Shown here: in pieces, positions 3,108 through 6,504 of the stretch | Position numbering within the stretch: the first letter of the stretch is position 1 | How the letters are laid out: each line of letters starts with the position of its first letter | DNA from: Solirubrobacteraceae bacterium | Lineage (GTDB): Bacteria > Actinomycetota > Thermoleophilia > Solirubrobacterales > Solirubrobacteraceae | DNA length: 32,731 bases | Assembly: GCA_024711025.1 (NCBI GenBank) | Contig: JANJTP010000064.1 | Location: 1 to 32,731 of the forward strand | Direction: 5' to 3' | Notes under the pieces: generated by a model | What the model saw: only the letters and a program-made list of their open reading frames with translations | The model's database searches: none | What the model was told of the DNA's origin: nothing | Program-made: the position numbers and the translations under genes

Positions 3108-3977
3108 ATGGACTTCGAGGGGCGCTACCGCGTACGGCCCGGGAAGCTGCGACTTGACGATCTGGACCCCGCGGACACGGCGAAGCTGACGAAGGACGAC
3201 GCCGCAGGGCTGCGCGAGCGCGATCTCGCGCGGCTCGCCGAGCTGCAGGAGCGGCTCTACGCCGAGAGCGCCCGCTCGCTGCTCGTCGTCTTCCAGGCGC
3301 TCGATGCGGCGGGCAAGGACGGCACGATCGGGCATGTGCTCAGCGGCCTGCACCCGCAGGGCGTGCAGGTGACGGCGTTCCGCGTACCGAGCGAGCTGGA
3401 GCGCGCGCACGACTTCCTCTGGCGCTGCCAGCTCGCGCTCCCCCGGCGGGGGCGGATCGGGATCTTCAACCGCTCGCACTACGAGGAGGTGCTTGTCGTG
3501 CGCGTGCATCCGGAGCTGCTCGCCGGCCAGCGGATCGATCCGGCCCGGGCGGGCGACGAGCGCTTCTGGCGCGAGCGCTACGAGGCGATCTCCACGTGGG
3601 AGCACCACCTCGCGCGAAATGGCACGCGGGTCGTGAAGCTGTTCCTCAACGTCTCGCGGGGGGAGCAGCGTCGGCGCTTCCTCGATCGCGTTGAGGAGCC
3701 CGACAAGCTGTGGAAGTTCTCGGCGGCCGACGTGCGCGAACGTCGCCATTGGGGCGCCTACCGCGCCGCCTACGAGCAGGCGCTCGCCGCGACGAGCACC
3801 GAGGAGGCTCCGTGGTACGCGATTCCCGCCGATCACAAGTGGCTGATGCGCACCGCCGTCGCGTCGATCCTCGTCCATCACCTCGAGGCGATGGATCCGC
3901 GCTACCCGGAGCCCGGCCCCGGCGAGCGTGAGGCGATGGACGAGGCGGTCGCCGAGCTCCGGGCGGAGAGCGCGTAG
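3108..3977 (+). CDS. PPK2-family polyphosphate:nucleotide phosphotransferase
   Basis: This 289-residue protein has the family layout: an N-terminal helix with LQERLYAESARSLLVVFQALDAAGKDGT containing the Walker A loop (about residues 64-72), then SGLHPQGVQVTAFRVPS, the DFLWR motif, the Walker B segment IGIFNRSHYEEVLVVRVHPE (about 117-136), and a C-terminal WYAIPADHKWLMR block. PPK2 enzymes move phosphate between polyphosphate and nucleoside mono- or diphosphates in the cytoplasm. The match is to the PPK2-related branch often annotated as polyphosphate:AMP/ADP phosphotransferase. Length is normal and all motifs are intact. Which nucleotide is preferred cannot be read. The gene stands alone, probably with a leaderless mRNA, and is convergent with the next regulator gene. 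Confidence 0.93.
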   Translation: MDFEGRYRVRPGKLRLDDLDPADTAKLTKDDAAGLRERDLARLAELQERLYAESARSLLVVFQALDAAGKDGTIGHVLSGLHPQGVQVTAFRVPSELERAHDFLWRCQLALPRRGRIGIFNRSHYEEVLVVRVHPELLAGQRIDPARAGDERFWRERYEAISTWEHHLARNGTRVVKLFLNVSRGEQRRRFLDRVEEPDKLWKFSAADVRERRHWGAYRAAYEQALAATSTEEAPWYAIPADHKWLMRTAVASILVHHLEAMDPRYPEPGPGEREAMDEAVAELRAESA

Positions 3978-4095: not shown

Positions 4096-4734
4096 CTACT
4101 CGGGCAGGCCCAGCACCTCGACCATGCAGCCCGCGCAGTCCGGGTCGCGCGGCTCGAACGCGCTGAGCCGCGCCTGCGGCGCGAGGCCCTCGAGCAGCCC
4201 CTCGGTCACCCCTCGGTGCAGACGGCAGACCACGTCGGCGCGTCGCCGGGCGGCGGCTCGGTAGGTGCAGCGCCCGAGCCTGACCCGCAGGGTGCCGGCC
4301 GGCGCCGGTTGCACCTCCGGCTCGAAGCCGGCGAGCTCGAGGCGGCGCAGAAGCTCCGTCCGAGCCTCAGCCTCGACGTGCCCCTCCGTCGTCATCGCGC
4401 GGCCGACGCGGCGCCCGGTGGCCTCGGCGTCGCCAGGCCCCTGTGGGCGCTCGGCGAGCGCCTCTGCGAGCCAGGTCGCGAGATCGGCCTGGGCGGCCGG
4501 GGCGGCCAGCGCGAGGCGACCGGCGTCCGTCAGCGACCAGCGGTCGTGCGGACGACCGGGGCCGTGGACGACGCGCTCCGCGACGACGAGCCCGTCCGTC
4601 GCCAGCCGCACGAGCTGGGCCCGCACGCCGTTGCGGTGCAGCCCGAGCAGGTCGGCGGCCTCGCGCGTCGTCAGCGCCGCATCGCTCTCGCCGAGCGCCT
4701 GCAGCAGTCGAGCCCGGGTGGGAATGGCCTGCAT
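4096..4734 (-). CDS. HTH regulator with Cys-rich C-terminus, probable Fe-S sensor
   Basis: The frame is open to 4800, but translation from there would run through the operator region, so the ATG at 4734 is preferred (212 residues). Residues about 8-70 form a winged helix-turn-helix (LTTREAADLLGLHRNGVRAQLVRL, then GRPHDRWSLTDAG), as in ArsR/SufR-like regulators. The C-terminus has four Cys: C156, C170, C200 and C203 (RCTY; VVCRLHRGVTEGLLEGL; DCAGC). This resembles Fe-S-binding regulators of the SufR type, although the spacing is not the classical SufR one. It is divergent from a ferredoxin gene, and the shared intergenic region holds two similar dyads. I infer a repressor of the ferredoxin and of itself that responds to Fe-S status or redox; this is not proven by sequence alone. 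Confidence 0.8.
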   Translation of the reverse strand: MQAIPTRARLLQALGESDAALTTREAADLLGLHRNGVRAQLVRLATDGLVVAERVVHGPGRPHDRWSLTDAGRLALAAPAAQADLATWLAEALAERPQGPGDAEATGRRVGRAMTTEGHVEAEARTELLRRLELAGFEPEVQPAPAGTLRVRLGRCTYRAAARRRADVVCRLHRGVTEGLLEGLAPQARLSAFEPRDPDCAGCMVEVLGLPE

Positions 4735-4753: not shown

Positions 4754-4773
4754 TCGCACACATTATTGTGCGA
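4754..4773. promoter_or_regulatory. Operator-like dyad O1 (regulator/ferredoxin)
   Basis: TCGCACA, six bases, TGTGCGA: a perfect 7-6-7 inverted repeat. It covers the proposed ferredoxin -35 box (TTGTGC, 4766-4771) and lies 20 bp upstream of the regulator start, so it could control both directions. Confidence 0.6.
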
Positions 4774-4794
4774 ACGCGAATCATGCGGTAGTTT
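4766..4794 (+). promoter_or_regulatory. Candidate ferredoxin promoter
   Basis: TTGTGC (4766-4771), 17 bp, TAGTTT (4789-4794). Transcription would begin near 4801, about 29 nt before the GTG start. O1 overlaps the -35 and O2 overlaps the end of the -10 and the start site, a typical repression layout. Confidence 0.5.
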
Positions 4795-4812
4795 GCACAT
4801 TCACGTATGCGA
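4793..4812. promoter_or_regulatory. Operator-like dyad O2 (regulator/ferredoxin)
   Basis: TTGCACA, six bases, TATGCGA: the same 7-6-7 geometry as O1 with five of seven arm positions complementary. O1 and O2 centres are 39 bp apart, close to four helical turns, so dimers would sit on the same face of the DNA. Confidence 0.5.
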
Positions 4813-4829
4813 ACCCCTTGGAGGCGCCC

Positions 4830-5093
4830 GTGACGTACGTCATCAATGAGCCCTGCATCGGCACGAAGGACGCCAGCTGCACCGAGGTCTGCCCGGTCGA
4901 CTGCATCCATCCGACGCCGAGCGACCCCGACTGGAACGACCACGAGATGCTGTTCATCGACCCCGAGGAGTGCATCGACTGCGACGCCTGCGTCGAGGCC
5001 TGCCCGGTCGACGCGATCACCCCGGAGGACATGGTCCCGCCGGAGTGGCAGAAGTACATCGAGATCAACGCGGCTTACTACCGCCGCGACTGA
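4830..5093 (+). CDS. fdxA: Seven-iron ferredoxin ([3Fe-4S][4Fe-4S])
   Basis: The start is a GTG at 4830 with GGAG six bases upstream. The 87-residue acidic protein begins TYVINEPCIGTKDASC and has the two cluster sites of bacterial 7Fe ferredoxins: C-x7-C-x3-CP near the N-terminus (CIGTKDASCTEVCPVDC) and a complete CxxCxxCxxxCP (CIDCDACVEACP). The ending PPEWQKYIEINAAYYRRD is also typical of the actinobacterial form. These are soluble electron carriers for P450s, oxidoreductases and other low-potential enzymes. The partner is not identifiable here. It lies divergent from a Cys-rich HTH regulator and upstream of a membrane protein, probably in one transcription unit with the latter. Confidence 0.95.
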   Translation: MTYVINEPCIGTKDASCTEVCPVDCIHPTPSDPDWNDHEMLFIDPEECIDCDACVEACPVDAITPEDMVPPEWQKYIEINAAYYRRD

Positions 5094-5181
5094 CGGGCGC
5101 CCGGGTGCCCGGGCGCCCCGGGCCGACCGGTCAGGTCGCGCCCGTCATCGGCGCTCGCATCGCTACCGTGCCGTGCTCGAC

Positions 5182-6504
5182 GTGAGCGATGTAGTCCAGT
5201 CAACCGATAACCCGGCAGCCGGCGCGTCCGCGCCGGCGAAGCGGTCGTGCCCCCGCACCGGCCGCAGCCGCGGGGACGCGCTCGCGGCCGGGCGGATCCG
5301 CCCGAGCGACATGCTCGTCGTCTTCCTGCTCGCGGGCGCGTCGATGATCCTGCTCGGCGGGCTCGCCGCGCTGATCGGCGAGCTCGGCGACTGGTGGTAC
5401 GGACGCTGGCTGGCGCTGCACCTCGTGTTCGTCGGCGGCATCTCGCAGCTCGTCCTCGGCGCGGCGCAGTTCTTCGCCGGAGCGTTCCTCGCCACCGATC
5501 CGCCGCACCGGCGGATCCTGCGGGCACAGCTCGTCTGCTGGAACCTCGCGGTCGTCGCGATCTCGATCGGTGTGCCCACCGGGGTCACGGCACTCAGCGG
5601 CGCCGGCGGCGTGCTCGTCCTCGCGGTGCTCGCGCTGTTCGCGCTCGCCCTGCGCCAGATGCAGCGCCGCTCGCTGCAGCGCCAGCCCTGGGCGGTGCGC
5701 TGGTACTTCGCGGGCGCCGCGTTCCTGGCGGTCGGGGCGTCCCTGGGGCCGGTCCTCGCCGACGGGGTGGCCTGGGCGCACGGGAGCCTCCTCGCCGCAC
5801 ACCTGACGCTCAACCTGGGCGGCTGGTTCGGCGCCGCGATCGTCGGCACGCTGCACACGTTCTACCCGTCGCTGACCGGTACGCGGCTGCGCTTCCCGGC
5901 GCTGCAGCGCCCGACGTTCCAGCTCTGGGCCGGCGGCATCGCGCTGCTGGCCATCGCATGCGCCTTCGACCTACGGGTGCCGGCGGCGCTTGCCTGGACG
6001 GGCCTCGTCGTCGCCTCGGCACTGCTGTGCCTGAACGTCTTCGCCAGCTCGCGCGCCGCGATCCAGCGCTCGCTGTCCGAGCGGCTTGTGCTCGTCGCGC
6101 AGCCGATGCTGCTGCTGGGCGCGCTGACCGGCCTCGCGATCACGATCTCCTCGGGCGCCTCGGCCGCGCTCGTCGGCGCCGACCGGGACGTCGTCGCGGT
6201 GCTGCTGGCCGGCGGCTGGATGGCGTTGACCGTCGCGGGGTCGCTCCTTCACCTGCTCGGGCTGATGTCGCGCGTGCGCAACCTCGCTCGCCCGGCGCGT
6301 CCGGAGGCCGCCGGCGCCTGGCAGCGAGGGCTACCGCCGGCCGCCGCGGCGCTCGTCGTGCTCTGGGCGCTCGCGCGGCTGCTGGAGGAGGGGGCGCTCG
6401 CGCAGGCCGCGGAGGCGCTTTTCGGCGTCGCCCTCGTTGCGCTCGCCGCGATGATCGCCATCGCCGCGGTGCGCGCGATACGTGCCGCCCCGCTGAGGTT
6501 CTGA
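5182..6504 (+). CDS. Multi-pass membrane protein, NnrS / haem-copper-oxidase-like
   Basis: The frame is open from far upstream; GTG codons at 5173 and 5182 are the likely starts (about 440 residues), though the membrane part begins only at MLVVFLLAGA (5311). About 11-12 hydrophobic segments follow. Two segments carry a His and a Gly-rich face: LHLVFVGGISQLVLGAAQFF and HLTLNLGGWFGAAIVGTLHTFYP. The second recalls the H-x-NLxGW...G-x-x-x-x-xYP pattern of NnrS proteins and cbb3/NorB-type oxidase subunits, where His can bind haem or metal. I cannot confirm a full set of ligands, so the assignment is tentative. It follows the ferredoxin by 88 bp on the same strand, which suggests a redox-linked membrane role. 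Confidence 0.6.
   Translation: MSDVVQSTDNPAAGASAPAKRSCPRTGRSRGDALAAGRIRPSDMLVVFLLAGASMILLGGLAALIGELGDWWYGRWLALHLVFVGGISQLVLGAAQFFAGAFLATDPPHRRILRAQLVCWNLAVVAISIGVPTGVTALSGAGGVLVLAVLALFALALRQMQRRSLQRQPWAVRWYFAGAAFLAVGASLGPVLADGVAWAHGSLLAAHLTLNLGGWFGAAIVGTLHTFYPSLTGTRLRFPALQRPTFQLWAGGIALLAIACAFDLRVPAALAWTGLVVASALLCLNVFASSRAAIQRSLSERLVLVAQPMLLLGALTGLAITISSGASAALVGADRDVVAVLLAGGWMALTVAGSLLHLLGLMSRVRNLARPARPEAAGAWQRGLPPAAAALVVLWALARLLEEGALAQAAEALFGVALVALAAMIAIAAVRAIRAAPLRF

What the first reader, a model, noticed from the sequence alone, without database searches (positions are those of the whole stretch)
4754..4812. Twin operators between a Cys-rich regulator and a 7Fe ferredoxin
Two dyads with the same 7-6-7 geometry (TCGCACA/TGTGCGA and TTGCACA/TATGCGA) lie 39 bp apart. 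They cover the -35 and the -10/start of a well-formed ferredoxin promoter (TTGTGC-17-TAGTTT). The divergent regulator has four Cys in its C-terminus (C-x13-C-x29-C-x2-C), unlike classical SufR spacing. This looks like an Fe-S-sensing switch for one ferredoxin and perhaps the downstream NnrS-like membrane protein.
Basis: partly seen in the sequence, partly recalled or inferred. Interest (0 to 1): 0.6.

Follow-up and report, generated by a model that had tools for sequence, protein, structure and literature searches.

The report
Nitric-oxide-type switch controlling a ferredoxin
Two matching DNA sites between a regulator gene and a ferredoxin gene are almost certainly the regulator's binding sites, and related bacteria use the same kind of regulator and site to control genes for coping with nitric oxide, so this is probably a nitric-oxide-sensing off-switch.

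Summary
In detail: two 7-6-7 dyads (4754-4773, 4793-4812) lie 39 bp apart between a regulator (4734-4096, minus) and a divergent 7Fe-type ferredoxin (4830-5093). By sequence alone the pair is only mildly unusual; comparison makes it real. Of 24 divergent regulator-ferredoxin pairs from Solirubrobacterales, all have at least one operator of the form kTTTnCACA-N7-TGTGnAAAm and 16 have two, nearly always 38-44 bp apart. The ferredoxin-side operator usually overlaps a TGnTAnnnT -10 box. The window's sites are a diverged version (N6 spacer, TCGCACA arms); the regulator's recognition helix has diverged too. It is not SufR, which forms a separate clade. It resembles ArnR, the [4Fe-4S] NO-responsive repressor of Corynebacterium, in Cys spacing, conserved His and predicted TRAPP-like sensor fold. 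The same operators precede RIC/YtfE, DUF2249, DUF59, nar and hemerythrin genes. Best reading: an autoregulated ArnR-like repressor that frees the ferredoxin promoter when NO damages its cluster. The downstream membrane protein is not Pfam NnrS; it is predicted to have a heme-copper-oxidase/NO-reductase fold.

The parts
4096..4734 (-). regulator, 212 aa: N-terminal winged HTH (HTH_20), helical linker, C-terminal sensor domain with Cys156, Cys170, His173, Cys203 (plus the protein-specific Cys200)
   Evidence: translation; Pfam; alignments; AF2 model mean pLDDT 87; TRAPP-like match for residues 79-209
4754..4773 (.). operator 1 (regulator side): TCGCACA-CATTAT-TGTGCGA
   Evidence: both sites present in 16 of 24 intergenic regions
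4793..4812 (.). operator 2 (ferredoxin side): TTGCACA-TTCACG-TATGCGA, overlapping the putative -10 and start region
   Evidence: orthologous site overlapping a TAnnnT box in 21 of 24 regions
4766..4794 (+). putative ferredoxin promoter TTGTGC-17-TAGTTT (weak match to consensus; the -10 position is supported by comparison)
   Evidence: not listed by the consensus scan
4820..4824 (+). GGAGG ribosome-binding site of the ferredoxin
   Evidence: sequence
4830..5093 (+). FdxA-like ferredoxin, 87 aa (C-x7-C-x3-CP and C-x2-C-x2-C-x3-CP, a 7Fe pattern)
   Evidence: Fer4 Pfam; FdxA NCBIfam models below cut-off; 65-82% identical next to homologous regulators
5095..5118 (+). G+C-rich hairpin between ferredoxin and membrane-protein gene, no U tail (possible terminator or attenuator)
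5182..6504 (+). 12-helix membrane protein (P0002), predicted heme-copper-oxidase/NO-reductase subunit fold; not Pfam NnrS; control by the operators not shown in this genome

Best explanation
The locus is an autoregulated repressor-operator pair. A dimeric ArnR-like regulator (winged HTH plus a TRAPP-like sensor domain that holds an Fe-S cluster, probably [4Fe-4S], on Cys156, Cys170 and Cys203 with His173 or Cys200 as the fourth ligand) binds the two operators. Operator 2 covers the -10 region of the ferredoxin promoter and operator 1 covers the upstream promoter region and the regulator's own promoter, so holo-regulator keeps both genes low. Nitric oxide nitrosylates the cluster, the repressor lets go, and the ferredoxin (possibly with the downstream heme-copper-fold membrane protein) is made as part of the NO/nitrosative-stress response. 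Shown here: sequence, operator conservation and position, invariant Cys3His set, separation from SufR, NO-linked regulon of the family operator. Inferred: cluster type, NO as signal, repression as mode, the role of the ferredoxin. The window protein is a diverged paralogue with its own N6 operator; the second copy in the same genome keeps the standard operator and sits beside the nar locus.
For: Operators conserved with the gene pair: 24 of 24 divergent regulator-ferredoxin regions have at least one site, 16 have two, 15 of these spaced 38-44 bp; 70 of 126 best sites scored 12/18 or more against about 1.5 in shuffles. Ferredoxin-side operator overlaps TGnTAnnnT in 16 of 24 (0.3 in shuffles) and TAnnnT in 21 of 24 (5.0). 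Regulon: in 773 kb of loci 99 operator sites at up to 2 mismatches against 2 control, 78 of them just before the regulator, ferredoxin, RIC, DUF2249, DUF59, P0002-like, hemerythrin or narG genes. In the window's own genome the standard operator lies before RIC/ScdA (perfect match), between DUF2249 and a DUF59-membrane protein-NarG run, at the paralogous regulator and before a cupin gene: 9 sites against 1 control. Sensor: Cys156, Cys170, His173, Cys203 invariant in 20 diverse actinobacterial homologues. ArnR has Cys179-x13-Cys193-x29-Cys223, a conserved His and a TRAPPC3-like sensor domain, and NO abolishes its DNA binding (PMC12343034); the window model's sensor half matches TRAPP subunits (2cfh_D, Z 10.7, 127 residues).
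Against: No ArnR sequence could be compared directly. The last Cys spacing is x32 with the conserved Cys203 (x29 only if the protein-specific Cys200 is used). The window's regulator has just two detectable sites, neither before a classical NO gene, so its own signal could differ from its paralogue's. No operon evidence links P0002 to the ferredoxin here. No expression or binding data exist.
Confidence: 0.7

Rival explanations
1. Fe-S homeostasis switch of SufR type: the cluster reports Fe-S supply or oxidative damage, and the ferredoxin is derepressed when clusters are short, without special regard to NO.
For: Same broad architecture (winged HTH plus C-terminal Cys3 sensor) and a weak SufR_cyano hit (24.1 bits against a cut-off of 178.8); a ferredoxin, DUF59 and an aconitase are among operator-linked genes; SufR itself is reported to react to NO (own knowledge).
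Against: Regulators found beside sufB form their own clade (100/100 support, branch 2.1) with C-x12-C-x27-C and no His (PMC6034842). None of the family members examined lies beside suf genes, and the regulon is rich in RIC, DUF2249, nar and hemerythrin genes.
Confidence: 0.15
2. Oxygen/redox or nitrate-respiration switch: the cluster senses oxygen rather than NO and couples the ferredoxin to low-oxygen metabolism.
For: Family members sit beside nar genes; many [4Fe-4S] regulators are oxygen sensitive.
Against: The nearest characterised analogue, ArnR, was found not to be an O2 sensor (PMC12343034); repair and NO-linked genes (RIC, DUF2249, hemerythrin) dominate the sites outside the regulator-ferredoxin pair.
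Confidence: 0.1
3. Metal (for example zinc) regulator of ArsR type using a Cys3His site.
For: ArsR-like winged HTH; Cys3His can bind zinc; the ArnR paper names a zinc-bound TRAPPC3 as a template.
Against: The genes identified at the operators include no metal transporter and many Fe-S or NO genes.
Confidence: 0.04
4. The dyads are chance repeats with no role.
For: Core dyad not enriched in the genome; similar twins turn up in 18% of random windows.
Against: Position, spacing and sequence conserved in orthologous regions (24 of 24 with a site).
Confidence: 0.01

Closest known systems
ArnR of Corynebacterium glutamicum ([4Fe-4S], NO-responsive repressor of narKGHJI and hmp; PMC12343034)
   Same: Winged HTH plus C-terminal sensor; three conserved Cys starting C-x13-C and a conserved His; TRAPP-like sensor fold; family operators at nar and NO-response genes; family spread over Actinobacteria
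SufR (cyanobacterial and mycobacterial suf repressor; PMC6034842)
   Same: Same general build: ArsR/MarR-like winged HTH with a Cys3 Fe-S sensor domain
   Different: C-x12-C-x27-C without the His, lies beside sufB, separate clade
NsrR regulons (Rrf2 family)
   Same: Fe-S NO sensor repressor; the ArnR paper names hmp as its chief target, and RIC and NnrS genes are typical NO-regulon members (own knowledge)
   Different: Unrelated Rrf2 DNA-binding domain, not found here
Heme-copper oxidase / cytochrome c NO reductase subunit I (for P0002)
   Same: 12-helix fold, Z 33.0 to cbb3 CcoN and 31.5 to cNOR over 374-387 residues
   Different: No Pfam match; only four invariant His (80, 207, 225, 357) and none in helix 7, so the usual two-metal centre is probably incomplete or altered (inference)

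Membership tests
ArnR family | N-terminal ArsR/MarR-like winged HTH | tested here: met
   HTH_20 28.3 bits over cut-off 27; MarR-type matches for model residues 4-79
ArnR family | Three conserved Cys, first pair C-x13-C, with a conserved nearby His | tested here: met
   C156, C170, H173, C203 invariant; ArnR numbers from PMC12343034
ArnR family | Second spacing x29 to the third Cys | tested here: inconclusive
   x32 to the conserved Cys203; x29 only to the protein-specific Cys200
ArnR family | TRAPPC3-like C-terminal sensor domain | tested here: met
   2cfh_D Z 10.7, rmsd 3.5, 127 residues, model 79-209; further TRAPP chains among Foldseek rows
ArnR family | Significant sequence similarity to C. 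glutamicum ArnR itself | not testable with these tools
ArnR family | Controls nar and NO-defence genes | tested here: inconclusive
   Met for the family operator and for the paralogue in this genome; the window's own variant operator was found only at its own gene pair
[quoted passage not shown]
   needs purified protein
SufR | NCBIfam SufR model over cut-off | tested here: not met
   24.1 bits against 178.8, HTH part only
SufR | C-x12-C-x27-C ligand spacing | tested here: not met
SufR | Groups with regulators adjacent to sufB | tested here: not met
   SufR rows form one clade (100/100) without P0001
NsrR/Rrf2 | Rrf2 HTH domain | tested here: not met
   no Rrf2 hit in Pfam
NnrS (P0002) | Match to Pfam PF05940 | tested here: not met
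   none in 19 homologues nor in the whole genome
FdxA ferredoxin | NCBIfam FdxA model over cut-off | tested here: not met
   FdxA_Actino 79.1 bits against 125, best of 105 families; the 7Fe Cys pattern is present in the translation

The most novel reading that the evidence does not exclude
The regulator, ferredoxin and heme-copper-fold membrane protein form a dedicated NO-handling module in Thermoleophilia: an ArnR-like sensor induces a 7Fe ferredoxin that feeds electrons to an undescribed heme-copper-superfamily protein able to reduce or trap NO, and in this genome a duplicated copy has split off with its own operator code (N6, TCGCACA) beside the nar-linked copy (N7, TTTnCACA).
Probability: 0.15. 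Interest if true: 0.7.

Novelty: new variant of a known kind. Interest (0 to 1): 0.45.

Why it matters
It gives a testable operator and regulon for a large, mostly uncharacterised family of actinobacterial Fe-S regulators. It ties a 7Fe ferredoxin and an unnamed heme-copper-fold protein to nitric oxide in common soil bacteria (Solirubrobacterales). It also offers a natural experiment in how duplicated repressors in one cell avoid each other's DNA sites.

Tried and rejected
Core dyad GCACA-N6-TGTGC as a genome-wide regulon motif: at or below control level, rejected. C-x2-C as a cluster motif: Cys200 unique to this protein. SufR membership: rejected. P0002 as Pfam NnrS: rejected. A solved relative of the sensor domain by sequence: only HTH matches. 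One shared palindrome upstream of the more distant actinobacterial homologues (L140-L220): none evident, so the operator has been shown only for Solirubrobacterales. Close orthologues of P0001: none above about 46-47% identity among 146 family genomes. A first count of -10 boxes included one row whose upstream letters I had typed without source; it was discarded and the count redone from the sequences.

Full report
WHAT IS THERE. The window (a 3.1-Mb genome in 72 contigs, contig C66) holds two dyads exactly where reported: TCGCACA-CATTAT-TGTGCGA at 4754-4773 and TTGCACA-TTCACG-TATGCGA at 4793-4812. To the left, on the minus strand, starts a 212-aa regulator (ATG 4734); to the right an 87-aa ferredoxin (GTG 4830, GGAGG at 4820). 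A 12-helix membrane protein follows (5182-6504). The closest named relatives of this regulator are in Solirubrobacterales/Thermoleophilia, including Conexibacter arvalis, Conexibacter sp. DBS9H8 and Paraconexibacter antarcticus.

IS IT MORE THAN CHANCE? From this one sequence only weakly. The short core is not enriched in the genome and a comparable twin pair appears in 54 of 300 random windows, though the expectation for one 95-bp intergenic stretch is well under 0.01. The longer form TTCGCACA-N6-TGTGCGAA at up to two mismatches occurs only at these two places in the genome. The claim of a 'well-formed' promoter is overstated: both hexamers match consensus at 3 of 6 and the scan prefers another pair.

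CONSERVATION. Homologous regulators (38-46% identical) were collected from relatives and from named genomes (61 loci). A ferredoxin of the same type lies in 40 of the 61 loci and a P0002-like gene in 18. The intergenic regions share a 25-bp operator, kTTTnCACA-N7-TGTGnAAAm: 70 of 126 best sites score 12/18 or more, against about 1.5 expected from shuffles. Of 24 divergent regulator-ferredoxin pairs (the window included), all have one such site, 16 have two, and 15 of those are 38-44 bp apart; the window's pair is 39 bp apart. The ferredoxin-side site starts inside a -10 box: TAnnnT in 21 of 24 (shuffles 5.0) and extended TGnTAnnnT in 16 of 24 (shuffles 0.3). The window reads GGTAGTTTGCACA where L120 reads GGTAGTTTTCCCA. 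The window's own version is diverged: 6 instead of 7 bases in the middle, CG instead of TT in the arms. The regulator's recognition helix is also diverged: Arg34 replaces Pro34, conserved in 42 of 43 homologues, and Gln40 replaces His40, conserved in 41 of 43. Gln40 is also seen in homologues whose operator is standard, so Arg34 is the more likely specificity change (inference).

REGULON. The standard operator in the window's own genome (up to 3 mismatches) has 9 places against 1 for the control pattern: a perfect one before an ScdA/RIC (YtfE) iron-centre repair protein; one between a DUF2249 gene and a run of DUF59, a membrane protein and NarG; two at the paralogous regulator; one before a cupin gene; the rest unassigned. 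In ten further genomes sites again fall at ferredoxin-regulator pairs, RIC, P0002-like genes and, in one genome, between an aconitase and a flavoprotein. Over 773 kb of collected loci there are 99 sites at up to 2 mismatches against 2 for the control, and 78 lie within 250 bp before a regulator, ferredoxin, RIC, DUF2249, DUF59, P0002-like, hemerythrin or narG gene. The loci were chosen for the regulator (and a few for the operator), so the regulator and ferredoxin counts are partly by design; RIC (6), DUF2249 (5) and the rest less so. RIC, DUF2249, hemerythrin and nar genes are recurrent members of NO and nitrate regulons (established knowledge). The window's variant operator has no further good site in the genome, so the window's regulator appears to serve its own gene pair only.

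THE REGULATOR. Pfam sees only the HTH, and no solved structure is related to the sensor half by sequence. Alignments show the sensor's invariant residues: Cys156, Cys170, His173, Cys203. Actinobacterial homologues across the phylum share this Cys3His set and lie beside DUF59, DUF2249, NnrS-like, nar and ferredoxin genes; in two genomes of about 5.5 Mb (L213, L214) the regulator again sits next to a ferredoxin and DUF2249. Regulators beside sufB form a separate clade with 100/100 support, C-x12-C-x27-C and no His, like M. tuberculosis SufR Cys203/216/244 (PMC6034842). ArnR of C. glutamicum has Cys179/193/223 (x13, x29), a conserved His, a TRAPPC3-like sensor domain and a [4Fe-4S] cluster; NO ends its DNA binding (PMC12343034). 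The AF2 model of the window protein (mean pLDDT 87) has a MarR-type N-terminal half and a C-terminal half that matches TRAPP subunits (2cfh_D, Z 10.7, 127 residues; 2bjn, 6aq3, 7b6d). This is independent support for kinship with ArnR. Since ArnR itself could not be aligned, I call it ArnR-like and not a proven member.

THE MEMBRANE PROTEIN. P0002 has no Pfam match, NnrS included. Its model (mean pLDDT 87.5) has the heme-copper oxidase fold: Z 33.0 to cbb3 CcoN (387 residues, 3.3 A) and 31.5 to cNOR. Four His are invariant in 19 homologues (80, 207, 225, 357). Helix 7, where classical members carry their His pair, has none, so a normal active site is doubtful (inference). Homologues in sister genomes carry the operator themselves or follow the regulator. 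In the window a strong hairpin lies between ferredoxin and P0002, so co-transcription is open.

MECHANISM. Best reading: cluster-loaded regulator dimers sit on both operators, block the ferredoxin -10 and their own promoter, and leave when NO nitrosylates the cluster; ferredoxin then supports repair or detoxification. My estimates: operator function and autoregulatory layout about 0.95; Fe-S cluster as sensor about 0.85; NO as the signal for this copy about 0.7. Which enzyme the ferredoxin serves is unknown; the heme-copper-fold protein and RIC-type repair are candidates.

VERDICT. A sound observation with a partly right interpretation. It is a new variant of a known kind: an ArnR-like NO switch with a ferredoxin target, a defined operator and a duplicated copy with its own operator. 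To my knowledge (own knowledge and the literature searches, which cover open-licence papers only) neither the operator nor this regulon has been described in this group.

Noticed in passing
window 5182-6504: Membrane protein with no Pfam family but a predicted heme-copper-oxidase/NO-reductase subunit I fold (Z 33) and only four invariant His; possibly an undescribed branch of that superfamily.
   Followed up: partly
L136 (G000:C24:50000-62771): Second copy of the regulator in the same genome (44% identical) beside NarG, DUF59, DUF2249, an OsmC-like protein and a CRP/FNR regulator, with standard N7 operators.
   Followed up: partly
L237 (G536:C1:2864151-2864687): Regulator homologue directly beside narG that has lost the cluster Cys (sequence APFLAIAARHAPVLYAFRRG), with an intact copy about 4 kb away: a possible apo-type paralogue.
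   Followed up: no
L186:8062 (G404:C2:35061): Operator-like site between an aconitase gene and a flavoprotein oxidoreductase: the regulon may include a central Fe-S enzyme in some species.
   Followed up: no
L186:4584 and L107:9450: Perfect operator matches before a small unknown membrane protein and near a rhodanese and a sulfite/nitrite-reductase-like gene; targets not assigned.
   Followed up: no
window 5095-5118: Ten-pair G+C hairpin without a U tail right after the ferredoxin stop codon; may end or attenuate transcription.
   Followed up: partly
window 3108-3977: PPK2-type polyphosphate kinase upstream of the regulator; the rest of the window (amidase, branched-chain-type ABC binding protein, trehalose synthase, MMPL, sulfate permease) shows no NO link.
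   Followed up: no
genus of the window (g1): Fourteen of sixteen same-genus genomes lack the regulator at E 1e-20; the other two (L015, L016) carry a 38-39% homologue, L016 beside narG and a P0002-like gene.
   Followed up: partly
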